A DNA stretch of 64,000 nt, taken from contig NZ_VTWT01000002.1 in the NCBI RefSeq assembly GCF_008727925.1, positions 434,001-498,000 on the forward strand, in the 5' to 3' direction. The translations under genes were made by a program, and so were the position numbers. A model generated the notes under the pieces. The model made no database searches, was not told where the DNA came from, and saw only the letters and a program-made list of their open reading frames with translations. The DNA comes from Adhaeribacter soli. Its GTDB lineage: Bacteria; Bacteroidota; Bacteroidia; Cytophagales; Hymenobacteraceae. Numbering within the stretch: position 1 is the first letter of the stretch; every line of letters starts with the position of its first letter. This document shows, piece after piece, positions 3,348 to 59,985 of this stretch.

Positions 3348-3350
3348 GCG

Positions 3351-4028: not shown

Positions 4029-4070
4029 AGCCTTAATTTTTAAGGTTTTAAGAAAAATTAACGAACTGCA

Positions 4071-4102
4071 TTTGTCTTACTCCAAACATTCTTTTATATT
4101 TG
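4071..4102 (+). promoter_or_regulatory. Promoter of rplS
   Basis: A TTTG box at 4071-4074 is followed after exactly 20 bases by TATATTTG at 4095-4102. This is a textbook Bacteroidota promoter (TTTG-N19/20-TAnnTTTG), and shows that rplS can be transcribed apart from rpsP-rimM-trmD. Confidence 0.75.
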
Positions 4103-4144
4103 CAGTCCGAAATCAGAAAAGAATATTTAATACTATAAAGAGCC

Positions 4145-4501
4145 ATGAGCCTACTGTTAGATTTAGTTAAAGAAGAATTCAACGAAAAACGCGCCTCTAT
4201 TCCAAATTTTTCAGCTGGCGATACTGTAAACATTCACGTAAAGATCCGTGAAGGCAACAAAGAAAGAATCCAGCAGTTCCAGGGCGTGGTTATTCAGCGT
4301 AGAAATGTAAACACCAACGGCGAAACTTTCACTGTGCGTAAAGTATCTAACCAGATCGGTCTGGAAAGAATTTTCCCTTTATTGTCGCCAAACATCGAGA
4401 AAATCGAATTAGTAAGAAGAGGTGTGGTACGTCGTGCCCGTCTGTTCTACCTGCGCGGCCTGAGCGGTAAAGCTTCCCGTATCAAGGAGAAAAGAAAATA
4501 A
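4145..4501 (+). CDS. rplS: 50S ribosomal protein L19
   Basis: The 118-residue protein matches L19 along its whole length: [49 protein letters not shown] and the basic end [11 protein letters not shown]19 sits at the interface of the ribosomal subunits. Gene position after trmD is the common bacterial order, but here it has a separate promoter and is followed directly by a strong terminator. Confidence 0.97.
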
Positions 4502-27147: not shown

Positions 27148-28785
27148 ATGAATAAACGAGATTTCAGCCTCAGCGGCCAGCTTATAGATATTGAAAACCA
27201 GGAAATTTACAGCGGCACCGTTCAGGTAGAAAACGGCAAGATTGTAAAAATTATTAGAGAAGATACTTCTGAAAAGCAGTACATTCTTCCCGGCTTTACA
27301 GATGCTCACGTGCACGTAGAAAGCTCCATGCTCGTGCCGCGCGAGTTTGCCCGTTTAGCCGTAGTGCACGGCACCGTGGCAACCGTTTCGGACCCGCACG
27401 AGATCGGCAACGTGCTGGGCCTGAAAGGCGTGGAATACATGCTCGAAAACGGTGCTCAGGTTCCCTTTAAGTTTTATTTCGGCGCGCCGAGCTGTGTACC
27501 GGCAACGCCTTTCGAAACGGCCGGCGCCGAAATAACCGCCGAAGACATTGAAGAGCTTTTCCAGAAACCGGAAATAAAATACCTGGCCGAAATGATGAAC
27601 TGGCCCGGCGTACTGAACCGCGACCCGGAGGTGATGCGGAAAATTACCCTGGCCCAGAAGTTCGGCAAACAGGTAGACGGCCACGCGCCCGGCTTGCGGG
27701 GCGAACAGGCACGCCAGTACATAGAAGCCGGCATGACCACCGATCACGAGTGTTTTACGAAAGAAGAAGCGCTCGATAAACTCAGATACGGCATGAAGAT
27801 CCTGATCCGGGAAGGCAGCGCGGCAAAAAATTTCGAAGCTTTAATTGAGCTGCTGCACGATTACCCGGACATGATGATGTTCTGTTCCGACGATAAGCAC
27901 CCGGATAATTTAGTGGAAAGCCACATAAACGAATTGGTAAAACGCGCGCTTGCCAAAGGAATAGATCTGTTTAAGGTACTAAAAGCCGCCTGCCTGAACC
28001 CGGTAAAACATTATCAGCTGGAAGTCGGCCTGCTACGCGAAAACGACCCGGCCGATTTTATTGTGGTGAACAACCTGCAGGATTTTGAAGTGCAGCAAAC
28101 CTATATAAACGGTATGCTGGTGGCCGAAAAAGGTAAAACCAACATCGAATTCGCCCCAAGCACCTTGATCAACAATTTCGATACCGACCTGAAAAAGCCG
28201 GAGCAGTTCCGGCTCGCCGCTCAGGAAGGCGAAAAAGTGCGGGTAATCGAGGCTTTCGACGGGCAGCTGATCACCAAAGAATCCTGGCAGAACGCAAAGG
28301 TGGAAAATGGAAATGCGGTTTCGGATGTGGCAAACGATGTACTGAAAATTACCGTCGTTAACCGTTACCAGAATGCCGAACCGGCTGTTGCATTTATTAA
28401 AAATATCGGGCTGAAATCCGGGGCAATCGCTTCTTCCGTAGGGCATGATTCGCACAACATTGTAGCCGTTGGTTGCGACGATGAAAGCATTTGCCGGGCG
28501 GTAAACCTGATCATTAAAGCCAAAGGCGGCGTAGCGGCTGTAGATGGTCCGGCCGAAAAATTACTGGCCCTTCCGGTAGCCGGCATCATGAGCGCCGAAG
28601 ACGGCTACGAAGTGGCCCAAGCTTATTCCCGGATCGATGCGATGGCCAAAGCCATGGGCAGCACCCTCGCCTCCCCTTTCATGACGCTCAGCTTTATGGC
28701 CCTGCTCGTGATCCCGGCCCTGAAACTCTCCGACAAAGGCCTGTTCGATGGCGAAAGCTTCCGGTTCGTGAATCCGGTGGAGTGA
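27148..28785 (+). CDS. ade: Adenine deaminase
   Basis: The 545-residue protein is a member of the amidohydrolase superfamily that turns adenine into hypoxanthine in purine salvage. Metal-binding motifs are visible as [11 protein letters not shown] (about 51-61), [18 protein letters not shown] (about 75-92), VDGHAPGL (about 176-183), [11 protein letters not shown] and [12 protein letters not shown] (about 248-259). The C-terminal half contains [20 protein letters not shown] and [20 protein letters not shown], both typical of bacterial Ade. It is monocistronic. An A/T-rich inverted-repeat tract follows. Confidence 0.95.
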
Positions 28786-29061: not shown

Positions 29062-29916
29062 ATGCTCGACCAGGTTCTGATCTTTGTAATCGGTATTATC
29101 GTGAGTGCCTTTGGTACGCTGGTTGGGTTTGGTGGCGGCATTTTTATGGTGCCCATTCTTATTATTTTCTTTCAGTACTCTATCGAAAATGCCATTGGGG
29201 CTACCCTGGCTTCGCTGCTGCCGGCTTCCCTGATCTCTTCGTTCTTTAATTACAGGGAGAAGAATATCGATTACCTAGTGGCTACTTTAATTCAGGTCCC
29301 GGCCATTGCCGGGACCATTACCGGGGCGTTTCTGGTGGCTTTTATGCCGGTACTAGAAATGCAGTTCTTCTTTGCTTTTTTTGTGATTGCGCTCAGCATT
29401 TACCTGCTTTCCACCCGGAAAAGTCCCGCTCAAAGTCCGAAGAAATCTACCATGTACCGGCTGCGCCGCATGCCTACCACGTTTATCCGACGAAACCGGC
29501 ATAAAAAGGTGGCTTACCGGCTGAACGGGGGCATTATTGGGTTGTTCGGTTACCTTTCTGGCTGCATTGCGGGTTTATTTGGCGTTGGGGGCGGATTCCT
29601 GCAAACGCCGTTTATGATCCGGGTTTTCCGGATGCCGCCGCAAATTGCCACTTCCACTTCGCTTTTCATTTTAATTATTACGAGCTTCTCCGGACTGGTA
29701 AGCCACTATTTGCTCGGGCACGTGATCTGGCTGAAAACAATGCCCCTGATGGCTGCTTTTGCCATTGGCGCGGCTTACGGCAAAGTATTGCGCCATCGTC
29801 GGACAAAGCTTCCCGGTACGGAGATCATGATCGGGGTCGGTTTGTTTCTGGCCGGAATAGGCCTGATTCTGAATATCCTGATCCGGTCGAACTACTTTCA
29901 GCAACTGGTTAAGTAG
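29062..29916 (+). CDS. TSUP family permease (sulfite exporter TauE/SafE-like)
   Basis: The 284-residue protein has about eight hydrophobic segments and the two family repeats, visible as GTLVGFGGGIFMVPILIIFF (about 20-39) and CIAGLFGVGGGFLQTPFMIR (about 168-188). TSUP proteins move sulfur oxyanions or small organic anions across the inner membrane. A basic loop (about 113-150, with RLRRMPTTFIRRNRHKK) separates the two halves. Substrate cannot be assigned; the nearest sulfur gene is the cystathionine beta-synthase-like gene 2.5 kb away on the other strand. Confidence 0.85.
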   Translation: MLDQVLIFVIGIIVSAFGTLVGFGGGIFMVPILIIFFQYSIENAIGATLASLLPASLISSFFNYREKNIDYLVATLIQVPAIAGTITGAFLVAFMPVLEMQFFFAFFVIALSIYLLSTRKSPAQSPKKSTMYRLRRMPTTFIRRNRHKKVAYRLNGGIIGLFGYLSGCIAGLFGVGGGFLQTPFMIRVFRMPPQIATSTSLFILIITSFSGLVSHYLLGHVIWLKTMPLMAAFAIGAAYGKVLRHRRTKLPGTEIMIGVGLFLAGIGLILNILIRSNYFQQLVK

Positions 29917-30377: not shown

Positions 30378-30824
30378 TTATGAATTAGGAATAGATTGCT
30401 TTTCTTCCGGGAAGTGGCGGCTTATCAGGCTGGACATTTTCTCGGCAGTAAGCGGTTTGGTGAGGTATTCGATACGGTATTTTTTCGATTTCTCGATATC
30501 TAAGGGATGCGAGGAGGTGGACAAAAAGGCCAGCACGATCCGGCTCCGGAAATCGTTGTCCAGTTTCTCGTAAAGGTCCATGAATTCGAACCCGTCCATA
30601 ACCGGCATATTAACGTCCAGCAAAATAAGATCGGGGCGGAAATATTCCGGGCTTTGCAGATCGTAATTGTTGCGGCTGATATTATAGAGGTAGTTGAAAG
30701 CCTGGTTTCCGTTCGGCAACACCTTCACTTTTGAGCAAAGCCCAAGCCGGGCAAATAACCGCTGATTCAGAAAATTATTCGTTTCGTCATCGTCAATCAG
30801 CAAGATGCCATCCAGTTTCTTCAT
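30378..30824 (-). CDS. Single-domain response regulator (CheY-like)
   Basis: The 148-residue protein is only a receiver domain: acidic pocket LLIDDDETNNF (D11-D13), phospho-acceptor LILLDVNMPVMDGFEF (D70), the switch Ser/Thr region VLAFLSTSSHPLD and the lysine in YLTKPLTAEKM. There is no output domain, so it must act on a protein partner or return phosphate to another protein. It lies 51 bp downstream of the sensor kinase gene on the same strand and is surely its cotranscribed partner. Confidence 0.92.
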   Translation of the reverse strand: MKKLDGILLIDDDETNNFLNQRLFARLGLCSKVKVLPNGNQAFNYLYNISRNNYDLQSPEYFRPDLILLDVNMPVMDGFEFMDLYEKLDNDFRSRIVLAFLSTSSHPLDIEKSKKYRIEYLTKPLTAEKMSSLISRHFPEEKQSIPNS

Positions 30825-30875: not shown

Positions 30876-32156
30876 TTATTGTTTGGGCAAATATACTTCA
30901 AAGGTACTTCCTTCCCCAATTTTACTTTTCACTTTTATGCGGCCATTATTGTTATCCAGGATCCGTTTTACAATATAAAGCCCGATGCCCGAACCGGTTA
31001 CCTGATCGTTGAGACGGCGGAAAAGCGAAAATATCTTGTATTCGTGTTTTTCCAGGTCGATGCCCTGGCCATTATCGGCAATGCGGAGCAGGCAGCAGTT
31101 CGGAATAGGCTCTGTCTGCACGAGGACATGCGGTTTGCGTAACGGGTTGTGGTATTTTAAAGCATTGCTGATCAGGTTATAAAGAATGCTTTTCAGATCC
31201 TGCCGGCAGAAATGAATGTTTTTAACCCTGGAGAAGTCAGCTTCGATGGTAGCGCCGGTTTGCGCGATCAGGTCCTGAATATCGGATTTCACTTCTTCCA
31301 GCACTTCGGCAAAACTAACTTCTTCCACCGGTGGGTTCGTTACTTCGTTCTGCAAGCGGCTTACTTCCGTAAGGTCCAGAATGGTACGATCCACTTTGAG
31401 CAAAGAGCCGTCCAGGCGTTTCAGAATGGCGTTTACGTGCTCGCTCCGTTGGGGAATTTCTTCTTTCAAGGCAGTAACCAGACCTTCTATGTTAACGATC
31501 GGGGCCTTCAGATCGTTGGAGGCACAGTAAACAAAATTATCGAGATCGGCATTGATGCGCACCAGTTCCTGATTTTTCTCCAGCAAGTCTTCTTCGGTCC
31601 GTTTCCGGATCTCGATCTCTCTTTCCAGTTCGCGGTTGGTTTTAATAAGCTGGGCGGTACGTTGCTGCACCCGGGTCTCGAGGGCTTCGTTGGCCTGGCG
31701 CAAGGCAACCTGGGCGCGTTCGCGTTCGGCCACTTCTTCGCGGAGCCGGGCATTTACTTTCTCCAGCCGGTCGTGGCTGGGCAGGGCCAGTAATGTAGGA
31801 ACAGCCCGGAGCAGGACCACCGCTGTAGAAACCGAAACCAGGCCGGTGATAATTTTTATGGCTCCCTGCAGTCGGTAAAATGGTTTCCAGACCGTTATGA
31901 TCTCGATTAAATGCGTGGCGCCACAGGCAAAAATAAAGAGCGCGAACAGCAGGAAAAGGGGTCTGTGGGTAAGATCTTTCCGCTTCCGGGTAATGTAAAA
32001 CAGAATAGGCGGAATGGAAAAGTAAGCCAGGGAGGTAAGGCCATCGCCTATTACATTGGTAAACAGGATCTCCGGCCGCCAGAAATAGCAATGCCCATGC
32101 GGCATAAACCCGTTAGACTCGAAAAGCTTTTGCAGATATTCTACCATTGTTATCAA
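30876..32156 (-). CDS. Ethylene-receptor-like membrane histidine kinase with Asn in place of the phospho-acceptor His
   Basis: The 426-residue protein begins with an extracytoplasmic stretch (GHCYFWRPEI, 21-30), then three membrane segments (about 34-55, 66-88, 97-122). The segments resemble the ethylene-binding domain of plant ETR1: DGLTSLAYFSIP (38-49) and FACGATHLIEI (76-86). D38, Y45, I48, P49, I75, C78 and H82 match ETR1 D25, Y32, I35, P36, I62, C65 and H69 with a constant offset of 13. A coiled coil (about 128-205) leads to the dimerisation helix. There the usual SHDLKAP reads SNDLKAP, with N214 replacing the phospho-accepting His (codon AAC). The ATPase domain looks intact (LYNLISNALKY, ADNGQGI, GSGIGLYIVK). 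A CheY-like gene follows 51 bp downstream. Confidence 0.88.
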   Translation of the reverse strand: MITMVEYLQKLFESNGFMPHGHCYFWRPEILFTNVIGDGLTSLAYFSIPPILFYITRKRKDLTHRPLFLLFALFIFACGATHLIEIITVWKPFYRLQGAIKIITGLVSVSTAVVLLRAVPTLLALPSHDRLEKVNARLREEVAERERAQVALRQANEALETRVQQRTAQLIKTNRELEREIEIRKRTEEDLLEKNQELVRINADLDNFVYCASNDLKAPIVNIEGLVTALKEEIPQRSEHVNAILKRLDGSLLKVDRTILDLTEVSRLQNEVTNPPVEEVSFAEVLEEVKSDIQDLIAQTGATIEADFSRVKNIHFCRQDLKSILYNLISNALKYHNPLRKPHVLVQTEPIPNCCLLRIADNGQGIDLEKHEYKIFSLFRRLNDQVTGSGIGLYIVKRILDNNNGRIKVKSKIGEGSTFEVYLPKQ

Positions 32157-33406: not shown

Positions 33407-33683
33407 TTCTTATTTAATTAAAAATTAGAAATTATGAATTAGAAATGAGGCGCTTAAAACAATCGCCTTATGTAAAGCAAAGGTAGGAAGATTTTTTGGG
33501 AATGATAGAACCTTGTTTTGGGATGAAAAACGAAAGGTTTGGCGGAAGAAAGCGCTGTAATGATTAGAAAAAGCGGATTACTTTTATAAAGAAAAATAAA
33601 TTAATAACAGCATGCAACGATTGATCGTTTTTTTGCGACCTGTATTCAGTAGCCTTCTTCAACTACCTAACCCACTCTTGGAT

Positions 33684-36323
33684 ATGAAAAAACTTCTTCT
33701 CTTATGCCTCCTGTCCGCGCTTACTTCCTTTAAAACGTCTGCCCAATTCTTTCAATGGGCTAAGTCTCAGGAAAATACTATTGATGGTACAAACCTGGCT
33801 GCAGGCAATAATCTGCTTGCTACAACCGGTTCTTTTTTCCGGACCATTACCCTTGGTAACCAGGTTCTATCCAGCCCTGATTCCAATAATCATTACCTGG
33901 CAGTAAGCGATCATGCCGGTAATGTACTTTGGGCAAAACATATTAAAAGTTACAGCTTTAATAAACCCAGCGTAACGGTAGATGCCAATCAGAATATTTT
34001 AATAGCCGGAACATTCCGCAGCTCGCTTGATATAGACGGTTTGCTTTTTCAGGGCAGTTCACCAAATAAACATGGTGTATTTGTAGCAAAGTTTAAACCT
34101 ACCGGTACCTTGCTCTGGGCTCGCAGTTCGGATGTAACTACCGGCAATCTTAGCTCCAATCATCTTTCTGCTTCGGTTGCCGCCGATGGGGCAGGTAATG
34201 TTTACGTAGGTGGTGATTTCAATAATTCGCTGACTTTTAACGGAACAAGCATTACAGCTTTATCAGGAAACAATGCGTTCCTGGTAAAATATGATGCCGC
34301 CGGTACCCTTCTATGGGCAAATACCGTTGGTTCTTCTACCTGGCAGGACCGGAATGTTAAAATTAATGTAACTCCTACCGGTTACGTCTATCTTTCAAAT
34401 ATTTTTGGTATTGTTACTCAACCCTTTTTTGGCTTTTCTGTTACTAAGATCAACCCTGCAGGAACCGTTCTCTGGAATAAACTAACTAACGGAAGTATTT
34501 TCGATATCAATCTGACAGTCGATGAATTGGAGAACACTTATATATCCGGCTATCTCACGGGCAACATCACGATTGGGAATACTACCATAACAGCCAATCC
34601 TAACAACTTCTTTTTGGCCAAGTTAAATTCTTCAGGTAACTGGAAATGGGCTAAATCTATTTCTGCTAACTTCCCTCCCCCCACTGGAGCTCCTCCAACT
34701 TTTTTAGATTTTCCTAAAACATATTACACTCCTAAAAAAGAACTAGCAGTTGCAACGGCTGGCGCAGTCACGAAACTTGATACGGCAGGAACAGTTCTCT
34801 GGACCAATAGTGCTACGGGCAATATTTATTCTTCCGGGCTTAGCGGCGATCAATTTGGTAATCTCTTTGTTTCAGGCCAATTTCACTCCGGTAATGCCCA
34901 GTTCAGCGCTACTACGCTGAGTACTTCTGCTTTTAGTGCAGGATTCTTAGCCAAAGTTACCAGGGAGGCGAATACAATTTCCGGTACTGTGTTCAGGGAT
35001 ATGAACAGCAATGGTATTTTAGATGCATCTGAAAGCCCTTTCAGCCAGGTAATGGTCGCAACTACGCCTGGGCCGATTTATGGCTTGTCCTCTTCCGATG
35101 GCACTTATAATATTTACTTACCATCCGGAAGTTCAGCGGTAGCTCTCCCTAACCCGCCCCGGTATTATACAGCTGTACCGGCAAACCATATTGTAACTTT
35201 TAGCGGAATGAACCAGGTACTGGCTAATAAAGATTTTGCTTTACAACCTATTCCGAACAGTAATGATGTGAAAGTGGCGGTAACCAACCTGGCTCCTGCC
35301 CGGCCGGGCTTTACTTTCAAGTACCTTCTAACCTATCAAAATGTAGGCACCACTACTTTATCGGACACGCTGTCGTTCACTTACAACACCACAAACCTGA
35401 TTTTTGGCTCCAGCACCACAGTACCGGTTAGCCATAATAATGGAAAACTAACCTGGTATTATCAGAATTTGCAACCTGACGAAACCCGCAGCATAGAGCT
35501 TACTTTTTCAGTGCCAGTCTCTACGGTTTTAGGTACTTCCATCCAGGCCGCTGCCAGCATTAAACCATTTACTATCGATCTGAACAAGGAAGATAACAAC
35601 GCCATACATCACCTGACGGTTGTGGGCTCTTACGACCCAAACGACAAGCAGGTAGACAAACCCACCCTGACCCTTTTGGAAGCTGCGAATGGCAACATGC
35701 TTGATTACACCATCCGTTTCCAGAATACCGGTACCGATACCGCTTTTACGGTGATCGTTACGGATAAAGTACCTGCCAACCTGAACCTGGTAAATTTTGA
35801 AATGGTAGCAGCCAGCCACGCCTATAAATTAAGTCTGGAAGATAACCAGCTTGTATGGCGCTTCGATAATATTCTTTTGCCCGACAGCAACCGCAACGAA
35901 CCGGCCAGCCATGGCTTTGCCCGCTTCCGCATTAAAACCAAACCGGGTCTGGCTCTGGGCGATTCTGTTGCTAATAAGGCTGCCATTTACTTCGATTACA
36001 ATGCGCCGGTAATTACCAATTACGCCATTACGAGAGTAGCCAACCCGACTGGAGTGAAAGAAGCCAAAGCCGGACTACAACCTTTCAGCCTTCACCCGAA
36101 CCCGGCAAAGAATTACGTAATGGTAGCTTCTGCATTCAAGAAACAAACGGTTTCTACCGTAAGCCTGGTAAACCTGTTAGGCCAGATCCTTCACCAGGTA
36201 ACGCTGCCGGCTAACGAGCAGATCCATTACCAGATGCCGCTGAACAACCTGCCGAAGGGAGTTTATGTAGTGCAGCTGGAAACTGAAAATGGCCGGCAAA
36301 CCCAGCGATTGGTGATCCGGTAG
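33684..36323 (+). CDS. Large T9SS-exported cell-surface protein (paralogue 1)
   Basis: I start at ATG 33684, not 33612, because it gives the signal peptide shared with both paralogues (MKKLLLLCLLSALTSFKTSA) and because 33612-33683 aligns with the non-coding leaders of the other copies. The 879-residue protein has a repeat region (about 25-430) with G-T-L-L-W-A-type strands every 45-60 residues, probably a beta-propeller. An SdrD-B-like domain with calcium-type DMNSNGILDASE follows (about 435-500). A DUF7619-like beta region (about 520-790, [24 protein letters not shown]) precedes a type IX secretion tail (about 805-879, ending RQTQRLVIR). It is likely a secreted or surface-anchored adhesin-like protein. 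Confidence 0.82.
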   Translation: MKKLLLLCLLSALTSFKTSAQFFQWAKSQENTIDGTNLAAGNNLLATTGSFFRTITLGNQVLSSPDSNNHYLAVSDHAGNVLWAKHIKSYSFNKPSVTVDANQNILIAGTFRSSLDIDGLLFQGSSPNKHGVFVAKFKPTGTLLWARSSDVTTGNLSSNHLSASVAADGAGNVYVGGDFNNSLTFNGTSITALSGNNAFLVKYDAAGTLLWANTVGSSTWQDRNVKINVTPTGYVYLSNIFGIVTQPFFGFSVTKINPAGTVLWNKLTNGSIFDINLTVDELENTYISGYLTGNITIGNTTITANPNNFFLAKLNSSGNWKWAKSISANFPPPTGAPPTFLDFPKTYYTPKKELAVATAGAVTKLDTAGTVLWTNSATGNIYSSGLSGDQFGNLFVSGQFHSGNAQFSATTLSTSAFSAGFLAKVTREANTISGTVFRDMNSNGILDASESPFSQVMVATTPGPIYGLSSSDGTYNIYLPSGSSAVALPNPPRYYTAVPANHIVTFSGMNQVLANKDFALQPIPNSNDVKVAVTNLAPARPGFTFKYLLTYQNVGTTTLSDTLSFTYNTTNLIFGSSTTVPVSHNNGKLTWYYQNLQPDETRSIELTFSVPVSTVLGTSIQAAASIKPFTIDLNKEDNNAIHHLTVVGSYDPNDKQVDKPTLTLLEAANGNMLDYTIRFQNTGTDTAFTVIVTDKVPANLNLVNFEMVAASHAYKLSLEDNQLVWRFDNILLPDSNRNEPASHGFARFRIKTKPGLALGDSVANKAAIYFDYNAPVITNYAITRVANPTGVKEAKAGLQPFSLHPNPAKNYVMVASAFKKQTVSTVSLVNLLGQILHQVTLPANEQIHYQMPLNNLPKGVYVVQLETENGRQTQRLVIR

Positions 36324-36351
36324 TTTTTCTGCAGCAATACCTACCATTTAT

Positions 36352-36388
36352 AAACCGGCTGCTTTTAAAAAGGCAGCCGGTTTTGTTT
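36352..36388 (+). terminator. Terminator after T9SS paralogue 1
   Basis: aaaccggctgc and gcagccggtttt flank a short A/T loop, followed by TTTTGTTTTA. Nearly identical terminators follow paralogues 2 and 3, showing that the duplicated unit included the terminator. Confidence 0.85.
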
Positions 36389-36496
36389 TATTAGGACATT
36401 GGAGAAATAAAATTTAATCCTGTTGCAACGTTTTGGAGGTTTATTGCGACTTCCTTATATAACATTTTATTAACAACCTAAGTTGGACATTAACTC

Positions 36497-36631
36497 ATGA
36501 AAAAGCTTCTTTTTCCCACCAACGACCAGATCCATTACCCGCTGCCGCTAAACAACCTGCCAAAAGGCGTTTATGTAGTGCAGCTGGAAACTGAAAATGG
36601 CCGGCAAACCCAGCGATTGGTAATCCGGTAG
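36497..36631 (+). pseudogene. Fourth T9SS paralogue collapsed to an in-frame 44-codon ORF
   Basis: From ATG 36497 an intact frame encodes MKKLLFPTNDQIHYPLPLNN and continues [10 protein letters not shown] ... RQTQRLVIR to TAG at 36629-36631. The first five or six residues match the start of the signal peptide of the paralogues. All the rest matches the last approximately 38 residues of their T9SS tail. The upstream 110 bases align with the leaders of paralogues 1 and 3 (aaataaaattt, gcaacgttttg). About 2.5 kb of the gene is therefore missing between the start and the tail, without loss of frame. It has no usable signal peptide, so it is most likely a dead remnant, though still an ORF. A degraded terminator (ccgggtg...accgggttgtttt) is visible at about 36664-36697. 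Confidence 0.8.
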
Positions 36632-36806
36632 TTTTTTAGCATAAATACTTACCGTTTCTGAGCCCGGGTGCTTTTTACAAATGTAACCGGGTTGTTTTCA
36701 ATTCTTTCCGGCAATGAAAGCCCGCATATATATCCTGAACATCTGCATGCATACGCCTAAACTCTGAGAATATACTTCAAAAAGGAATAGAAAGCATTAT
36801 TTATTT

Positions 36807-36837
36807 TTTGTTAAAATAGAAAATTTCATTACTTTAC
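36807..36837 (+). promoter_or_regulatory. Candidate promoter of T9SS paralogue 2
   Basis: TTTG at 36807-36810 is followed after 19 bases by TACTTTAC at 36830-36837, a good -33/-7 pair with one mismatch in the -7 box. The start codon is 24 bases on. Confidence 0.5.
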
Positions 36838-36861
36838 TTCTGTTAAACCAACTCTGCCACT

Positions 36862-39549
36862 ATGAAAAGAACGCTACTTCTCCTGTTTTTAACAATTGCC
36901 GGTTCCCTGACTGTACGGGGCCAGGCCTTTCAATGGGCAAACTTACAGGGCACAGATTATTTCCCTTCGATCCAATCAGATGGAGCAAATTTAATTTCTG
37001 CGGGAGAAATTACTACCCCTACCGTATTCGGCAGCCAAACTTTTTCCGGCGGCTGTTACCTGGCCAAACATAACACTAATGGCTCATTGGTCTGGGCAAA
37101 GAATATTATTGGAGCAACAATCCAGATAGAAATAGCAACCGATCGGAATAAAAACATTTTAATTGCCGGCGCTTACCGGGATTCTTTATTTATTGATACC
37201 GTGATTTTTAAAACGCCAAGACGGCATCAAAAAGAAGCATTTATTGCTAAGTTCAATCCTAGTGGAAATTTAATCTGGATACAAAAACTTATTGCCTCTT
37301 CGAACCCTTTGCTAACGCTTGATGGTAATGACAATATATATTTAGCTGGTAGTTTTCAGGGCACTTTGTCAATTGGAAATACTTCTTTAATTGCCAATGG
37401 CATCAACAGTACATATCTGGCTAAATTTGATAGTAACGGCAGATTGCAGTGGGTAAAAAATACAACAGACAACACAAACAATGTTGCTTATTTTTTTGAG
37501 CCCTATACGAATCTGCAGGGAGGGTTGAATGAGGACGTTTATACCGTAGCTGTATTTAGCAAAACCCATCCTTCAGGGGAACTAACGATTACTAAATACA
37601 ATAAGCAGGGGCAAAAACTATGGGACAAACGAATAGAATATTTAGGTCACAATGGTCCTTTTGACCCCAGGCCCTCTTTGAGCCTTGATTCTACGGAGCA
37701 CCTCTACCTTAGCGATAGAATTTTAGGAAACACCATTATTAGAATTGACAATACAAGTTTAACATTTTCTGATACTTCAACAGACAATACGCTCTTTACA
37801 AAACTGAGCCCGACAGGTAAATTAACATGGGCAAAAATACTGCCCTTTGGGAGTCGGGTAATTGGCACAAGACTGGCAAAGGAAATCAGGAATGAATTAA
37901 CCATGACCAGAGATTTTGCAGATTGGAGAACAGGTAAAGAATCGAACCACATCTCAAGGCTGGATACGGCCGGCAATATTCTAGACTCTAAGACCATAAA
38001 TGCAAGAACCTTTGACCCTCTGACCAGATCTTTCGGTATTTATGGCATTACATTAGACGATGAAAACAACCAATATATAACAGGAGGTGTTTTAGGCACT
38101 ATTCGCTTAGGTTCTTTAACGATCAATGGTCTACTTCAGGGGCCAATGACACCCTCTAATGGCCCAACAAGGGTTAGCGGTTACATTGCTAAAATCCTGA
38201 ATCATTTCAATACCGTTTCCGGCAATTTATTTATCGATGCGAACGGTAATGGGGTAAAAGATACCGGGGAAAAACCTTACCAGGAGGGTATAATTGAAAT
38301 AAACCCGATGATGGCCTATGCTGTTAGCGACTCCAATGGCAATTATTTGGCGTACTTACCAAAGGGCAATTTTAATTTAACGCCTTCCGCTTCCATTCTG
38401 AATTACACAATTTCGCCCCAAAACCATAGCGTTTCCTTTACCGGAACTAACCAGACCCAGGTCAAAGATTTTGGCTTTGCGCCGATCCCGAACCGTAACG
38501 ATGTAAAAATAACCGTTACAGCTATGACGCCGTCACGGCCGGGCTTTCCGCTAAAATACCGGGTAACGTATAAAAATGTGGGCACTACAACCCTTTCCGA
38601 CAGCCTCAACTTAAAATATGATCAGGCTAATCTGACTTTGGGCTCTGTTTCCGTAACCCCGGCCGTTCACCAAGGGAATTATTTGCGGTGGAATTACCAG
38701 AACCTGCAGCCAAACGAAAGCCGGAATATTGACCTGCAATTCACGGTTAACGTTTCTACTCCCCGAAGTACGGTTTTAATTGCCCCATCTTACATTAGCC
38801 CCTTTGCTACAGACCATTTTAAAGCAAATAATACCGACACCTTAAGGCACCCCGTTACCGGCTCTTACGACCCGAACGACAAGCAGGTGAATCTGGATAA
38901 ATTAAGCCCAACCCAGGTAAATTCCGGTCAGTTATTAGGCTATGTGATCCGCTTTCAGAATACCGGAAACGATACGGCTTTTACCGTGGTGGTACGCGAT
39001 TCTATCGGCGACAAATTACAAATATCTTCTTTTGAAATGCTTTCTGCCAGCCATGCTTATACGTTTCGGATACTGGATAAGGGCATAATTGAATGGCGCT
39101 TTGAAAACATTCTATTACCCGACAGCAACCGGAACGAACCAGCCAGTCATGGCTTTATCCGGTACCGGATTAAACCTAAAAGCAACCTGAAATTAGGGGA
39201 TGAAATTAAAGGAAGAGCCGCTATTTACTTCGATTTCAACGAACCGATATTTACCAACTTTGCCCTTACCCGCATTGCCGAACCGAACCGCAATCCTTTT
39301 GTAAGTGATTTTTATCTTTATCCGAACCCGGCTAAAAATTACGTTACCGTGGCTGCCGATCTGAAAAACCGCAGTTCGGCCACTATCAGCCTTATGAACA
39401 TATTAGGCCAGACCATTTCGAAAGTTACTTTACCCGGCAACGAGCAACTACATTATAAATTACCATTGAACAACCTGCCGAAAGGTGTTTATGTAGTGCA
39501 GCTGGAAACCGGGAACGGCCGGCGAACCCAGCGATTGGTGATCCAGTAG
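36862..39549 (+). CDS. Large T9SS-exported cell-surface protein (paralogue 2)
   Basis: The 895-residue protein has the same plan as its neighbours. A signal peptide (MKRTLLLLFLTIAGSLTVRG) is followed by a repeat region with LVWAKN-, LIWIQK-, LQWVKN- and LTWAKI-type strands. The B-type domain has a calcium-like loop IDANGNGVKDTGE (about 456-468). The DUF7619-like region has [10 protein letters not shown] and [14 protein letters not shown], and the T9SS tail (YPNPAKNYVTVAAD ... RRTQRLVIQ) ends the protein. It is the most divergent of the three, especially in the N-terminal repeats, which suggests different ligands. The tail directs export through the type IX system and anchoring or release at the cell surface; ligand is unknown. 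Confidence 0.82.
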   Translation: MKRTLLLLFLTIAGSLTVRGQAFQWANLQGTDYFPSIQSDGANLISAGEITTPTVFGSQTFSGGCYLAKHNTNGSLVWAKNIIGATIQIEIATDRNKNILIAGAYRDSLFIDTVIFKTPRRHQKEAFIAKFNPSGNLIWIQKLIASSNPLLTLDGNDNIYLAGSFQGTLSIGNTSLIANGINSTYLAKFDSNGRLQWVKNTTDNTNNVAYFFEPYTNLQGGLNEDVYTVAVFSKTHPSGELTITKYNKQGQKLWDKRIEYLGHNGPFDPRPSLSLDSTEHLYLSDRILGNTIIRIDNTSLTFSDTSTDNTLFTKLSPTGKLTWAKILPFGSRVIGTRLAKEIRNELTMTRDFADWRTGKESNHISRLDTAGNILDSKTINARTFDPLTRSFGIYGITLDDENNQYITGGVLGTIRLGSLTINGLLQGPMTPSNGPTRVSGYIAKILNHFNTVSGNLFIDANGNGVKDTGEKPYQEGIIEINPMMAYAVSDSNGNYLAYLPKGNFNLTPSASILNYTISPQNHSVSFTGTNQTQVKDFGFAPIPNRNDVKITVTAMTPSRPGFPLKYRVTYKNVGTTTLSDSLNLKYDQANLTLGSVSVTPAVHQGNYLRWNYQNLQPNESRNIDLQFTVNVSTPRSTVLIAPSYISPFATDHFKANNTDTLRHPVTGSYDPNDKQVNLDKLSPTQVNSGQLLGYVIRFQNTGNDTAFTVVVRDSIGDKLQISSFEMLSASHAYTFRILDKGIIEWRFENILLPDSNRNEPASHGFIRYRIKPKSNLKLGDEIKGRAAIYFDFNEPIFTNFALTRIAEPNRNPFVSDFYLYPNPAKNYVTVAADLKNRSSATISLMNILGQTISKVTLPGNEQLHYKLPLNNLPKGVYVVQLETGNGRRTQRLVIQ

Positions 39550-39577
39550 TTTCTCTGCAGAAATTCCTACCATTCAT

Positions 39578-39612
39578 AAACCGGCTGCTTCTGAAAGGCA
39601 GCCGGTTTTGTT
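39578..39612 (+). terminator. Terminator after T9SS paralogue 2
   Basis: aaaccggctgc and gcagccggtttt pair around ttctgaaag, followed by TTTTGTTTTA. It is the second copy of the shared terminator. Confidence 0.85.
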
Positions 39613-39718
39613 TTACCGGAACAAGGAAAAAATAAAATTTCAGGGAAGCAGCGTTTTGATTATAAGCTTTGTTTTCATAATATAACACCTGATTTATTCC
39701 TGACCTAACATCGCAACC

Positions 39719-42418
39719 ATGAAAAAACTTTATCTTTTATGTTGGCTTATACTATTGAACTGCCTGAGCGCCTCTGCCCAATATTTTCAGTGGGCCAAAG
39801 CGCAATCCGCCATTACAAATGGACCTGTACTGGCAGCCGGCAACAATTTTATTGCCGCTACCGGACAATTTCATCGGTCTATAACTTTTGGAAGCCAAAC
39901 GCTCACCAGTCCCGATACTTTAAATGCCTATCTGGCCGCGTACGATTTAGGAGGTAATCCACTTTGGGCGAAACATATTATCAGCAATAGTTATTTTCAG
40001 CACCATGTAACCGTAGATCAGAACAACAATATAATTTTAGCGGGTACTTTCCAGGATTCGCTCTACATCGGGAGCTTACTGTTTAAAGGTACAACGCCCA
40101 ATAGTCAGGGCGTATTTGTTGCCAAGTACAATGCTGCCGGAACGCTCCTTTGGGCCCAAAGTTCAGCGATTACTACTACTACCCAGCCGCGGGGCATCTC
40201 CGTTTCTGCCGATGCCAATGGCAATGTTTATTTGTCGGGCATTTTTGGAGGCAACATCAGCTTTGGAAGCAATACTTTCTCTTCACCTAACAGTTATGCA
40301 TTTCTGGCAAAATACGATTCAAACGGTTTGTTACAATGGGCAAAAGTGCCATATCCTAACTTGTATGTGTCGGATGTAAAAGCTAAAGCAACAGGTAGTA
40401 GCCACCTTTATTTCGCCGTTTCGACAGATAGCGCAGGTCTAAGGGTAAGTAAACTGAATGGGAGCGGCACGATGGCTTGGGAGGCATTTGTGAGTGGTAT
40501 TAACAGGTTAAACATCAGGTTCGATATTGCCACCGATAATGCCGGGCATGCCTATATTAGCGGTAGTGGTGGAAGCCCAATCATATTTTCTAACATGATA
40601 GGGGCCTATACAATAAGCAATGGAACTATGGCAAATAACCGGCCTGTTTTCATAGCTAAGTTAACTCAGACCGGTAACTGGACCTGGAAAAATTGGCTGG
40701 CTACCGGAAGCTACACGGCGGAGGGACCTGCTATCTTTTACAACGAAAACAATAACCGAATAACGGTTTCGGGTGCCTATACAGGGGCTGCTTCCTTTAA
40801 TAATACGAACCCGATACCAAGCGTGCCGGCAACTACTTTCAATTCCTTTGCTGTAAACTTAGATACAGCCGGAACCCATAACTGGACAAACGTGGTAAAC
40901 GGCACCAACTTTAACAGTAATTCCGGTTTAACCGGCGACGCCAACGGCAACCTTTATATTGCGGGCTTATTTCATAGAGGTGCCATTAACTTCAATACCC
41001 ATGTGCTGAATTCAACTTCCGTACAAACCGGTTATCTGGCCAAGCTGTCGAGCGATATAAACCAGGTAAGCGGAACCGTGTTCGTGGATGCCAACGGGAA
41101 CGGAACAAAAGACAGCAACGAGCTGCCTTTCCCCAATTTAATTCTGGAAACTTCGCCTGCTCCGGCAATCCAATATGCAACGAGTAATAATGGCGATTAC
41201 AGATTCTATTTACCTGCCGGAACTTTCAGCTTAAATGTACCGAATACGCCCCGCCATCATACCCTGGCGCCAGCCAGCCAATCTGTAACCTTTAGCGGCT
41301 TAAACCAGACTCAGACAGGAAAGGATTTTGCGCTGCAGCCAATCCCGAACCGGCAGGACGTTAGCGTTACGGTAACCAACCTCACTCCTGCCCGTCCGGG
41401 ATTTACGCTGAAGTACCGGTTAACCTTCCGGAATATCGGTACCACCCCGCAGTCGGACAGTATTTCCTTAAATTTTAACGCTGCAGCACTTTCCTTTGCT
41501 TCATCAACCGTAGTGCCGGCCGTACAACAAGCCGGAAACCTGAAATGGTTTTATCAGAATCTTCAGCCTTATGAGAAACGGGAGATCGATATTACAATGA
41601 ACGTGGCCACTACTGCCGTTTTAGGGGCAAACCTGCAGACCCTGGCAACTATTAAACCTTTTACCGGCGATCTGTTTGTTCAGGACAACCGGGACACGCT
41701 CAACTTTCCGGTAACCGGTTCTTACGATCCAAACGATAAACAGGTAAACAACCAGACTCTGACTCCAGCTCAGGTGGCCGGCGGCCGCCTCTTAGACTAT
41801 ACCATCCGTTTCCAGAATACAGGTACCGATACCGCTTTTACTGTAGTAGTAATAGACTCTATCAGCGATAAATTACAAATGCCAACCTTCGAGTTACTAT
41901 CTGCCAGCCACCCTTACACCTTCCGCTTACTGGAAAATGGCATGGGCGAATGGCGTTTCGACAATATCCTGCTGCCCGACAGTAACCGCAACGAACCGGC
42001 CAGCCATGGTTTTATCCGCTACCGGATTCAGCCCAAAAACAACCTGGTGTTGGGCGATGAAATCAGATCCAGAGCAGCCATTTACTTCGACTACAACGCA
42101 CCGGTTATGACCAATTATGCCATTACCAGGGTAGCGAACCCGACCGGAATAAAAGAGGCAAAGGCCGGTCTGCAAGCTTTCAGCCTTTACCCGAACCCGG
42201 CCAGGAACTACGTAATGGTAGCTGCTGCTTACAAAAAGAAAACGGTTTCAACCGTAAGCCTGGTAAACCTGTTAGGCCAGACCCTTCACAAAGTAACCCT
42301 GCCGGCTAACGACCAGATCCATTTCCAGATGCCGCTGAACAACCTGCCAAAAGGCGTTTATGTGGTACAACTGGAAACCGAAATTGGACGGCAGACGCAA
42401 CGCCTGGTAATTCAGTAG
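39719..42418 (+). CDS. Large T9SS-exported cell-surface protein (paralogue 3)
   Basis: The 899-residue protein begins with a signal peptide ([16 protein letters not shown]) and YFQWAKAQ, almost as in paralogue 1 (FFQWAKSQ). The repeat region has LLWAQS-, LQWAKV- and WTWKNW-type strands. The B-type loop [13 protein letters not shown] lies at about 455-467. The DUF7619-like region and the sorting tail follow ([20 protein letters not shown] ... RQTQRLVIQ). Its last 120 residues are much closer to paralogue 1 than to paralogue 2, although paralogue 2 lies between. This points to gene conversion or a later duplication. Export by T9SS to the surface is expected. Confidence 0.82.
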
Positions 42419-49065: not shown

Positions 49066-50055
49066 ATGAAAATTTTCATTTCACATTCGTCGAAAAATAA
49101 AGATTACGGAAATACACTTGTTGACCTTTTGATATCAACTGGCGTAAATAGCGATGACATTATATTTACAAGTAATGATGCACATGGAATCCAAACCGGC
49201 AAAAATATATTTGATTGGCTAAAAAGCAGAATCAGTGAAAAACCATTTGTAATATATTTATTATCACCTGATTATTATAAAAGCGTTGCCTGTTTAAATG
49301 AAATGGGCGCTGCTTGGATAGTTGAGAATAATCATGCAATGATTTTTACTCCAGACTTCGACTTGAATTGCTATGAGTTTCAGAATGGAGCTCTTGACCC
49401 AAGAGAGATGGGCTTTTATATAAATAACGAAAACCGAATGCTTTTATTTATAGAAGCATTAAAACCTAAATTCTCAATAACAAACAACAATGTCTTAATA
49501 AATCAAAAGGTGAAACAGCTTATTGAATCTATTAAGCCATTCCACACAGATAGAACGGATTCATCAAATTTCAGAACAATAGAATCTATATCTACCGTAG
49601 AAAATGCACTGATAGGAAAGTTTGAAGGGCGAGCACTAGACATTTTAAAAAGCCCTATTGATAATATTACAACTGATGGGAAATCAAGATTTTATTCGGA
49701 CTTATTTGAGGGGAAACTAAAAAAGGAAGAGGCTTTTCTAGCGAGATATATTATAGATACAGATAGATTTAATCTTGGAACTGGTTGGCAAGAATCAGGT
49801 GAAATTGAAAGAATTAAAACTTGGGAAGATATCAATTGCTTTGAAAACATTTTATCAAACAATTACCATAGCGTAATAAAAAGACTTGAAATGAAAAAAT
49901 TACTTCTTGTCTCTGAGGTAACAAGTCATGGAAATCCCAAAGAGATGTGTTTAGTGGAGAATTTTGCAAATGAACTTCTTGATCCAAGTAAAGTACTCCT
50001 CGATAAATTGAATGAAATTGTCACTACTACTCAAAACGAAGAATTGCCTTTTTAA
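49066..50055 (+). CDS. TIR-domain protein with unknown C-terminal domain
   Basis: The 329-residue protein starts with a TIR domain (about 1-160): KIFISHSSKNKDYGNTLVDL, DDIIFTSNDAHGIQTGKNIF, YLLSPDYYKSVACLNEMGAA. E79 in CLNEMGAAW is at the position of the catalytic Glu of NAD-cleaving TIRs. The remaining approximately 165 residues have no family I recognise. Bacterial TIR proteins of this type act in antiphage defence by NAD depletion or signal making, but no Thoeris (ThsA) or other known partner is adjacent. The gene is strongly AT-rich and lies next to another AT-rich gene, both suggesting transfer. A hairpin repeat follows 22 bases after the stop. Confidence 0.8.
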   Translation: MKIFISHSSKNKDYGNTLVDLLISTGVNSDDIIFTSNDAHGIQTGKNIFDWLKSRISEKPFVIYLLSPDYYKSVACLNEMGAAWIVENNHAMIFTPDFDLNCYEFQNGALDPREMGFYINNENRMLLFIEALKPKFSITNNNVLINQKVKQLIESIKPFHTDRTDSSNFRTIESISTVENALIGKFEGRALDILKSPIDNITTDGKSRFYSDLFEGKLKKEEAFLARYIIDTDRFNLGTGWQESGEIERIKTWEDINCFENILSNNYHSVIKRLEMKKLLLVSEVTSHGNPKEMCLVENFANELLDPSKVLLDKLNEIVTTTQNEELPF

Positions 50056-58200: not shown

Positions 58201-59985
58201 ATGATTCTTAAAACTATCCACATCAAAAGGTTTAGGTCAATCATTGATTTAAAGCTTGAATTAAATACAAAAAATAATTTTGCTACCATATGTGGATCAA
58301 ATAATTCAGGTAAGACTAATGTTCTTAAAGCATTAAATATCTTCTTTAATCCTTCAGAATACATTTTAAAAGATGATGTTCCAAATCATAAAATTGGGTC
58401 ACGAGGTGGTGCGACATATCCAGAAATTTCATTAACCTTCGTAAAAGGAGATACAACACATTTAATTAAAAGGTCTTTTGGCGTTGACGGAATCCAATCC
58501 GAAGAATATGAAAAGGTCACAAATAATCTTGGAAAACCAGTAAAGTCAAAACAAGATCCGAATGAAATTATAAAGCTATTAGGACATATTGAGTTCTTCT
58601 TTATTCCTGCTATAAACATCTCTTTTCCTACCTTGATAAATAACTTAATTGATGACGTTTATGAATTGGAATATGAAAAAACAAGGTTTTATGGCCTAAA
58701 GAAAGATTTGAAAGATTCATTTGAAAAATACACATCTGGGCTTTTAGAAATATTAAACAAACTTGCTAGTGAAATAAACCCCATTTTTAAAGAATTTAAT
58801 GACAACTGGAGCGTAAGTTTTGATAATACTTCAGATATTAAAAAATTTAAAGACTTAATCTCAGAGGATATAGAGTTTTATTTAAATGATTTTTCAAACA
58901 GAAATATTCAAGGTAAAGGATCAGGGCTTCAAAGATTAGGGTACATTTTACTTCACAGTAAAATTATCTTCAAACTTAAAAAGAAGAACGTAATTCTATG
59001 TATCGATGAGCCAGATGTTTACCTTCATCAAGGACTTCAAAAGAAGTTACACAGCCATTTATTAGATATTTCAAAAAAGCACCAAGTAATTATTACTTCT
59101 CATTCTCAAACCTTTATTGATTGCTATAAATTAGACAATGTTTTTCTATTAGATTTAGAAATTGGTGAAGAAATATTTTACCAAAGGTCACAAACAAAAT
59201 ATCACCCATTAAATACGACCTTAGTAAACATAAAAGAAGATAATGGCCTAAAGAAAATCAGAGAATATTTAGGCATTACAGATGAAGATTATGAGCTATT
59301 AGAAAACTACAATATTATAGTTGAAGGGGAATCTGACAAAAAATACATAACAGAGTTATCTAACTTTTTTGGCATAGATGTACCTAATATTATTTATTCT
59401 GGAGGTGCAACAAAAATTGATAAATATTTGGAGTTTTATGAGTCATTCTATAAAGACCGAGATTTCAAACCTAAGATCAGAGTCCTTTTTGATAATGATG
59501 ATGAAGGCAGAAAAGAATATAATAAACTTAGGAGCAAAATCAATTCTTTGAGGAATATTAAAGCAACAATTGAATTCGTTCCTAACTGTTTTGGCGAGCT
59601 CCCTAATATAGAGGACGTTAAAGCTAATAAAGTAAAATGCAATTTCGAAATTGAAGATTTCGTTTTCCCAGAAGTTTTACATTTCCTTTCAACGGAGATA
59701 ATGAAGAAGATTGAACTTAATACATTCAAATTCACCGCTCTAGAAAAAAAAGTTAAAGCACCAGCTTTTAAGGAAAAAGGTGTTCTTTATAATATCGAAC
59801 TATTAAAAAATGATCTTAATCTTGAAGAAGGTGTAAAAATTGACTTTACTGGAGAACAAGCCAAAAATGGAATGGTAGGTTTGTTCAAAATTAAAGGCAG
59901 CAAAAAGATGGGAGAATTAATACAAAATGCAGATATAAAATATCCAGAAGTAAAGAAGTTCTTAGGAAAAATACAAAAGGCATAG
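58201..59985 (+). CDS. OLD-family ATP-dependent endonuclease (AAA ATPase plus TOPRIM)
   Basis: The 594-residue protein has an ABC-type ATPase: Walker A GSNNSGKTN (32-40), signature-like GSGLQRLGYIL (about 241-251), Walker B VILCIDEPDVYLHQ (264-277, D269/E270) and an H-loop TSHSQTF (H301). A TOPRIM domain follows: NIIVEGESDKKYI (371-383, E375) and VLFDNDDEGRKEY (428-440, D431/D433). This is an Overcoming-Lysogenisation-Defect nuclease. Such proteins act in antiphage defence alone or with a helicase (Gabija) or other partner; none is adjacent. The gene is strongly AT-rich and lies against pheT, both signs of transfer. Confidence 0.88.
   Translation: MILKTIHIKRFRSIIDLKLELNTKNNFATICGSNNSGKTNVLKALNIFFNPSEYILKDDVPNHKIGSRGGATYPEISLTFVKGDTTHLIKRSFGVDGIQSEEYEKVTNNLGKPVKSKQDPNEIIKLLGHIEFFFIPAINISFPTLINNLIDDVYELEYEKTRFYGLKKDLKDSFEKYTSGLLEILNKLASEINPIFKEFNDNWSVSFDNTSDIKKFKDLISEDIEFYLNDFSNRNIQGKGSGLQRLGYILLHSKIIFKLKKKNVILCIDEPDVYLHQGLQKKLHSHLLDISKKHQVIITSHSQTFIDCYKLDNVFLLDLEIGEEIFYQRSQTKYHPLNTTLVNIKEDNGLKKIREYLGITDEDYELLENYNIIVEGESDKKYITELSNFFGIDVPNIIYSGGATKIDKYLEFYESFYKDRDFKPKIRVLFDNDDEGRKEYNKLRSKINSLRNIKATIEFVPNCFGELPNIEDVKANKVKCNFEIEDFVFPEVLHFLSTEIMKKIELNTFKFTALEKKVKAPAFKEKGVLYNIELLKNDLNLEEGVKIDFTGEQAKNGMVGLFKIKGSKKMGELIQNADIKYPEVKKFLGKIQKA

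What the first reader, a model, noticed from the sequence alone, without database searches (positions are those of the whole stretch)
31500..31530. Phospho-acceptor histidine replaced by asparagine (SHDLKAP to SNDLKAP)
In this class of kinases the H-box reads SHDLKAP. Here codon 214 is AAC (Asn), read directly from the sequence, while the ATP-binding N, G1 and G2 boxes are intact and a receiver-only gene lies 51 bp downstream. Such a protein cannot autophosphorylate at the normal site. It could be a pseudokinase that regulates a partner, act as a phosphatase toward the receiver, use another residue, or reflect a one-base error (CAC to AAC).
Basis: partly seen in the sequence, partly recalled or inferred. 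Interest (0 to 1): 0.72.

Follow-up and report, generated by a model that had tools for sequence, protein, structure and literature searches.

The report
Ethylene-receptor-like kinase without its histidine
A bacterium carries a sensor resembling the plant ethylene receptor whose kinase half has lost the histidine it would need to pass on a phosphate, and in a related genus the same gene has kept a different non-working residue at that spot under selection, which suggests a sensor that signals without the usual phosphate transfer.

Summary
In detail: codon 31517-31515 (-) is AAC, Asn, where the class has His; ATP-binding boxes and the downstream receiver are intact. Among 23 positional orthologues in the family (cysteine synthase upstream, receiver downstream), 7 have His, 15 (all in genus g6) have Arg, 1 (the window) has Asn. 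In the only same-genus species held, the gene stops just before the H-box, and kinase and receiver are missing from the locus. The Arg kinases are not decaying: dN/dS 0.05-0.09, Arg kept by four different codons, receivers intact in 15 of 15, although their ethylene site is mostly lost. So canonical phosphotransfer was lost at this locus at least once, probably twice, and g6 maintains a pseudokinase plus receiver. Best reading: a pseudo-histidine kinase working like Caulobacter DivL. For the window's own Asn copy, early decay is a serious rival because of the sister. The residue needed for HisKA phosphatase activity (T/N at H+4) is absent, so the phosphatase idea is unlikely. New variant of a known kind; no biochemistry done.

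The parts
30876..32156 (-). ETR1_N receptor pseudo-histidine kinase, 426 aa from TTG, 423 aa from the likelier ATG at 32147
31782..32069 (-). ETR1_N ethylene-binding-type sensor, three TM-length helices in the model; all seven ethylene-binding residues present (D, Y, I, P, I, C, H)
   Evidence: PF25487, E 1.1e-32, 112.6 bits, cut-off 27; helices
31515..31517 (-). AAC, Asn214 (Asn211 from ATG) in place of the phospho-acceptor His
31503..31505 (-). Ala at H+4, where HisKA phosphatases need Thr or Asn
   Evidence: PMC3510030 passages
31152..31178 (-). N box NLISNALKY, intact
31059..31076 (-). G1 box DNGQGI, intact
31011..31031 (-). F box FSLFRRL
30978..30995 (-). G2 box GSGIGL, intact
30378..30824 (-). 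Single-domain receiver, Asp70 (30615-30617), Thr103 and Lys123 present
   Evidence: PF00072
32423..33406 (-). Cysteine synthase-like gene (name recalled from its sequence, no family search), upstream neighbour used to define positional orthologues
   Evidence: found in 24 of 35 ETR1_N loci of the family: the 23 with a receiver and the same-genus species
29062..29916 (+). TauE/SafE-type permease (name recalled from its sequence), frequent downstream neighbour
   Evidence: in 19 of those 24 loci
27148..28785 (+). Adenine deaminase-like gene (name recalled from its sequence), where synteny with the same-genus species resumes
   Evidence: in 20 of those 24 loci

Best explanation
The gene encodes a bacterial ethylene-receptor-type sensor (ETR1_N, coiled coil, DHp, ATP-binding domain) that has become a pseudo-histidine kinase. 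It can probably still dimerise, bind ATP and dock its receiver, but cannot form phospho-histidine at the normal site. Most likely it works like Caulobacter DivL: the transmitter reads or holds the neighbouring receiver, which is phosphorylated by another kinase, and the sensor changes that interaction by conformation rather than by phosphotransfer. Shown by sequence: Asn at the site, intact ATP boxes, intact receiver, intact ethylene-binding residues, a syntenic Arg clade under purifying selection. Inferred: ATP binding, receiver docking, an outside phosphate donor, and function of the Asn copy itself.
For: Of 23 positional orthologues 7 have His, 15 Arg, 1 Asn. Arg is encoded by CGT 8, CGC 4, AGA 2, CGG 1, so the residue is kept while the codon drifts. 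Kinase-domain dN/dS in the Arg clade is 0.049-0.094 in the 5 of 6 pairs that gave a value, against 0.12 in the 2 of 5 His-bearing pairs that gave one (both of these from other loci); receiver 0.05-0.10 in 6 of 6 Arg-clade pairs. Receivers keep the Asp, Thr and Lys in the window and in 15 of 15 Arg loci. The window kinase departs from 3 of 42 outgroup-conserved columns (one is the His), His-bearing relatives from 0-3, and its kinase-domain branch (0.73) is within the range of paths to His-bearing relatives from the same fork, about 0.55-0.75 summed from the printed tree. HK853 with its His mutated to Ala crystallises with its receiver, itself mutated at the Asp (PDB 6rh7, 6rh8, titles). DivL lacks His, keeps the other boxes, showed neither kinase nor phosphatase activity and binds the phosphorylated receiver DivK (PMC4211667, abstract and passages).
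Against: No biochemistry. The window's Asn is seen in one assembly of one species; the only same-genus species held has no kinase part and no receiver at this locus, which fits relaxed need for the output in this genus. In the receiver tree the window's end branch is flagged as long (0.95, median 0.18), although it has no near relative in that tree. The Arg clade has mostly lost the ethylene site (1-3 of 7 residues kept), so it may not do the same job. No candidate outside kinase or partner was identified. The DivL parallel is functional analogy (22% identity in the fold match), not shown homology of function.
Confidence: 0.5

Rival explanations
1. The window copy is in early decay: the output is no longer needed in this genus, the Asn is an ordinary inactivating change, and no pseudokinase function exists in this species.
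For: The only same-genus species held (PheT protein 96% identical) has the gene ending just before the H-box (frame of 218 codons, 209 aa from its ATG), with kinase part, receiver and permease missing from the locus and another gene on the opposite strand in their place. The sensor differs strongly between the two species (59% identity, dN/dS 0.22 against 0.06-0.07 for three other genes; dS 1.4, near saturation), and the other species' sensor is further from 10 of 10 orthologues than the window's. The window's receiver branch is flagged long.
Against: In the window the frame is open, all ATP boxes, 7 of 7 ethylene residues and the receiver are intact, conserved columns are kept, and the kinase branch is not longer than those of His-bearing relatives. 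A recent loss would look the same.
Confidence: 0.28
2. Split-labour kinase: the Asn subunit still binds ATP and phosphorylates the His of a partner kinase in a mixed dimer.
For: The N, G1, F and G2 boxes and the Asp next to the site are kept. Trans-phosphorylation by a His-to-Asn mutant of NRII is recalled only: none of the 12 papers listed of 323 holds 'H139N'. Mixed dimers of the native paralogous kinases ChrS and HrrS were seen (PMC9491836, abstract and passages).
Against: This is the only ETR1_N protein of the genome, so no partner with the same sensor is at hand; other partners were not looked for. In PMC9491836 a passage, cut in what I saw, says that an interaction could not be observed in a further test.
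Confidence: 0.12
3. A phosphatase for the receiver.
For: Kinase-dead bifunctional kinases can keep phosphatase activity (recalled general knowledge).
Against: H+4 is Ala, not Thr/Asn; in the four HisKA proteins tested in PMC3510030 that residue was required for phosphatase activity. It is Ser or Ala in the 7 His-bearing positional orthologues too.
Confidence: 0.05
4. One-base error in the assembly (CAC read as AAC).
For: A single change would explain it, and only one assembly is held.
Against: The same locus carries Arg in 15 related species, and a different ETR1_N kinase of the same order (L212, codon AAT) also has Asn, so loss of this His does occur in such proteins.
Confidence: 0.05

Closest known systems
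Bacterial ethylene receptors SynEtr1 (Synechocystis) and AzoEtr1 (Azospirillum brasilense)
   Same: N-terminal three-helix ethylene-binding domain with the seven binding residues, C-terminal histidine-kinase module; AzoEtr1 is also followed by a gene for a 135-aa response regulator without another output motif (PMC11819568, passages).
   Different: SynEtr1 signals by His phosphorylation and AzoEtr1 is predicted to; here the His is Asn (Arg in g6). AzoEtr1 has a PAS domain, none was reported here.
Plant subfamily 2 ethylene receptors (ETR2, ERS2, EIN4)
   Same: Ethylene-receptor sensor on a diverged kinase; of the three in Arabidopsis only EIN4 kept the phosphorylated His (PMC3611092, passages).
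   Different: Plant ones have a GAF domain and an extra TM helix, are reported to have Ser/Thr kinase activity and act on CTR1 (PMC3485614 and PMC3611092, passages); here a separate receiver gene follows. That the bacterial loss is independent of the plant one is inferred, not tested.
DivL pseudo-histidine kinase (Caulobacter)
   Same: His replaced, other kinase boxes kept, pairs with a separate receiver protein, DivK; sequence and fold match to PDB 4q20.
   Different: Tyr instead of Asn or Arg, PAS sensors, essential cell-cycle role (PMC4211667, passages); only about 22% identity.

Membership tests
Bacterial ethylene receptor (ETR1_N histidine kinase) | ETR1_N domain over the Pfam cut-off | tested here: met
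   112.6 bits, cut-off 27
Bacterial ethylene receptor (ETR1_N histidine kinase) | Seven ethylene-binding residues | tested here: met
   DYIPICH, 7 of 7 (D25 and C65 are named in the passages seen of PMC11819568, the other five positions are recalled); 5 of 7 in the same-genus species, 1-3 of 7 in the 15 g6 proteins
Bacterial ethylene receptor (ETR1_N histidine kinase) | Binds ethylene through copper | not testable with these tools
   needs a binding assay
Active HisKA histidine kinase | Phospho-acceptor His | tested here: not met
   HisKA (PF00512) is not among the families reported at E 0.001
Active HisKA histidine kinase | N, G1, F, G2 boxes and HATPase_c | tested here: met
Active HisKA histidine kinase | Thr/Asn at H+4 (phosphatase activity) | tested here: not met
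   Ala
Pseudo-histidine kinase (DivL type, by mechanism) | His replaced while the rest of the transmitter is conserved | tested here: met
   strongest in the Arg clade
Pseudo-histidine kinase (DivL type, by mechanism) | Binds a phosphorylated receiver without kinase or phosphatase activity | not testable with these tools
   a receiver gene is next door; binding untested
Plant subfamily 2 ethylene receptors | GAF domain and extra N-terminal TM helix | tested here: not met
   no GAF domain reported at E 0.001; three TM-length helices before the coiled coil in the model

The most novel reading that the evidence does not exclude
At this locus in Hymenobacteraceae an ethylene-receptor kinase has been turned, probably more than once, into a phosphotransfer-free sensor that takes its neighbouring receiver as an input. 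Information then flows from receiver to receptor, as in DivL but gated by a gas-sensor domain in the window species, in parallel with the kinase-dead ethylene receptors of plants.
Probability: 0.25. Interest if true: 0.75.

Novelty: new variant of a known kind. Interest (0 to 1): 0.58.

Why it matters
Plant ethylene receptors signal mainly without histidine-kinase activity, whereas the two bacterial ones discussed in PMC11819568 use, or are predicted to use, phosphotransfer. A bacterial ethylene-receptor locus where the kinase His has been dropped while the receiver and ATP site are kept offers a natural series (His, Asn, Arg, kinase missing) in related bacteria for testing what such receptors do without phosphotransfer. 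In the Arg clade the ethylene site is mostly lost as well and the pseudokinase is still under selection, which separates the sensor's role from the transmitter's.

Tried and rejected
Alternative His acceptor: the window protein has no His in its first DHp helix and one in the stretch up to the end of the second (RSEHVNA, 26 residues after the Asn); in the Arg clade no His column of that stretch is shared by all, the best being 9 of 15. Tyr at -3 is found in 15 of 15 Arg proteins but not in the window; not pursued.

One shared loss for window and Arg clade: the trees put the His-bearing g3 next to the Arg clade and the window outside (92/69 in the kinase tree, 89/86 in the concatenated tree), which means two losses, but holding window and Arg clade together is not rejected (AU p 0.35 and 0.31). 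Not settled. The PheT tree did not resolve the order of the genera.

Other look-alikes: of the 33 loci with a gap or Glu at the column, duplicates included, 32 carry a recognisable H-box of another type elsewhere (HHRVKN, LHNVGN, AHEINNP, REIHD and the like). The one left, L057 (a MAG), seems to lack the H-box by an in-frame gap and has a disturbed 3' end; not counted as a loss. 27 ETR1_N proteins had no kinase match and were dropped from the census.

dN/dS: YN00 gave no value for several saturated pairs; these are left out and the counts above say so.

Literature: no paper of the library holds both 'Hymenobacter' and 'ethylene receptor'. Seen as listings only: 8 of 8; 20 of 26; 12 of 63; 12 of 323; 3 of 3; 8 of 78; 3 of 4. 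None of the listed titles or abstract starts describes a bacterial ethylene receptor without its His; only open-licence PMC papers are held. Of six papers I saw passages, of none the whole text.

Full report
WHAT IS THERE. The codon at 31517-31515 on the minus strand is AAC. It sits in DNFVYCASNDLKAPIVN, where the His-bearing orthologues read SHDLK followed by S, A or V and P. The ORF is 426 aa from a TTG; alignment with orthologues favours the ATG at 32147 (423 aa, Asn211). The N, G1, F and G2 boxes are intact, and a 148-aa receiver-only gene with its Asp, Thr and Lys follows after 51 bp.

WHAT THE PROTEIN IS. Pfam gives ETR1_N (ethylene receptor N-terminal domain, 112.6 bits, E 1.1e-32) and HATPase_c; HisKA is not reported at E 0.001. 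The seven positions needed for ethylene binding in plant ETR1 are D, Y, I, P, I, C, H here, 7 of 7 (D25 and C65 are named in the passages seen of PMC11819568, the other five positions are recalled). The AlphaFold model has three TM-length helices, a long coiled coil running into the first DHp helix with the Asn inside it, and a kinase ATP domain (mean pLDDT 82, pTM 0.51, monomer). The best PDB fold matches are HK853 with its receiver RR468, including complexes of HK853 H260A with RR468 D53A (6rh7, 6rh8); DivL (4q20) is at ranks 21-22. It is the only ETR1_N protein found in the genome.

ORTHOLOGUES. In 204 genomes of the family, 34 have ETR1_N, 35 matches in all. All 35 were fetched. By locus, 23 have a cysteine synthase-like gene upstream and a receiver downstream. 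Of these 23 the H-box residue is His in 7 (3 of genus g2, 4 of g3), Arg in 15 (all of genus g6) and Asn in 1, the window. Of the 12 other matches, one is the same-genus species G001 (below), 10 carry a kinase with His (9; the second match of G033) and one (G025) is a 239-aa frame without a kinase match. By shared DNA with named records, four g2 genomes are Pontibacter and one g3 genome is Adhaeribacter aerolatus; Adhaeribacter belongs to Hymenobacteraceae.

THE ARG CLADE. The Arg codon is CGT in 8, CGC in 4, AGA in 2, CGG in 1: the amino acid is kept while the codon changes. Kinase-domain dN/dS is 0.049-0.094 in the 5 of 6 pairs that gave a value; the 2 of 5 His-bearing pairs with a value gave 0.12, both from other loci. 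Sensor dN/dS is higher in the Arg clade (0.11-0.33 in 4 of 6 pairs) than in His-bearing pairs (0.03-0.17 in 4 of 5), with overlap. In this clade only 1-3 of 7 ethylene residues remain, yet 15 of 15 keep a receiver with Asp, Thr and Lys. This looks like a maintained pseudokinase with a maintained receiver and a relaxed sensor.

THE SAME-GENUS SPECIES. G001, the only other species of the genus held, has the gene at the same place (cysteine synthase upstream, adenine deaminase beyond), but its frame ends after 218 codons (209 aa from its ATG), right before the H-box; kinase part, receiver and permease are missing from the locus and another gene on the opposite strand lies there. PheT is 96% identical between the two species, CysM 91%, the deaminase 89%, but the sensor only 59% (dN/dS 0.22, with dS 1.4, against 0.06-0.07); in 10 of 10 comparisons G001's sensor is further from the orthologues than the window's. 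So that copy seems to drift while the window's sensor looks ordinary. This is the strongest fact against a working pseudokinase in the window species.

THE WINDOW COPY ITSELF. It departs from 3 of 42 columns conserved in 19 His-bearing outgroup kinases (the His, a His-to-Asn in the ATP lid, a Glu-to-Asp); the 10 His-bearing relatives depart from 0-3 and the Arg clade from 3-7. Of 63 columns invariant in those 10 it departs from 4, the Arg clade from 8-11; each of the 10 left out in turn departs from 0-4 of 63-67, a milder test since genus mates stay in. Its branch in the kinase tree (0.73) is within the range of paths to His-bearing relatives from the same fork. In the receiver tree its end branch (0.95) is flagged as long; it has no near relative there, and the paths to g3 receivers are longer still. 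There is no sign of long decay of the kinase; a recent loss would look the same.

HOW MANY LOSSES. In trees of the kinase domain, and of linker plus kinase plus receiver with the H column blanked, the window does not group with the Arg clade; His-bearing g3 is next to it (92/69 and 89/86). But a tree holding window and Arg clade together is not rejected (AU p 0.35 and 0.31). Two losses are likelier, one is possible. A further Asn occurs in a different ETR1_N kinase of the order (L212, codon AAT, 7 of 7 ethylene residues); 11 similar kinases of the order (THILSHN) have His.

HOW RARE. The census took ETR1_N proteins from the family (35 of 35), the order (24 loci and 60 regions out of the matches), the phylum (20 loci) and named genomes (the best 80 of 229). 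With duplicates largely removed, 174 loci had a kinase match: 127 with His (one of them also with a second, unaligned stretch), 15 Arg, 2 Asn, and 30 with a gap or a misaligned Glu at this column. Of the gap or Glu loci, 32 of 33 (duplicates included) have an H-box of another type elsewhere; L057 is the exception. In the window's own genome 22 of 22 other alignable kinases have His, and so do 16 of 16 kinases matched without a sensor alignment in other genomes of the family and order (L019-L034).

MECHANISM. The normal site cannot be phosphorylated, by sequence. HisKA phosphatase activity needs Thr/Asn at H+4 (PMC3510030, abstract and passages); here it is Ala, and it is Ser or Ala in the His-bearing positional orthologues. 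This leaves conformational signalling, trans-phosphorylation of a partner, or no function. DivL is the model for the first: no His, other boxes kept, no kinase or phosphatase activity seen, specific binding of a phosphorylated receiver (PMC4211667, abstract and passages). The arrangement here, receptor followed by a receiver-only gene, is that of AzoEtr1 (PMC11819568, passages). In Arabidopsis the subfamily 2 ethylene receptors have a diverged kinase, and all but EIN4 lack the His (PMC3611092, passages). I commit to a pseudokinase of DivL-like action for the locus as the likeliest reading (0.5), with decay of the window copy next (0.28).

VERDICT. Real, correctly read, and part of something larger than one codon: loss of phosphotransfer, probably repeated, at an ethylene-receptor-type locus in one bacterial family. 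It is a new variant of a known kind. The case for function rests on selection and synteny alone, and mostly on the Arg clade.

Noticed in passing
L163 (G001:C22:137900-146200): Same-genus species: ETR1_N gene ends just before the H-box; kinase part, receiver and permease are missing from the locus and another gene lies there; the sensor diverges fast.
   Followed up: yes
L212, about 2803-4413: Another ETR1_N kinase, of a different family in the same order, with Asn (AAT) at the His position: NFTHILSNNLRDH.
   Followed up: partly
L184, L185, L187, L188, L191, L192, L195, L198, L199, L200: ETR1_N proteins of about 155-182 aa without a kinase match in the same ORF.
   Followed up: no
window 33612-42418: Three tandem proteins of 895-903 aa that look alike by eye, with similar C-terminal ends.
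   Followed up: no
window 49066-50055 and 58201-59985: A protein beginning like a TIR domain and an AAA/OLD-like ATPase (both judged by eye, not searched); possible defence genes.
   Followed up: no
L057: ETR1_N kinase of a MAG that seems to lack the whole H-box by an in-frame gap; its 3' end looks frameshifted.
   Followed up: partly
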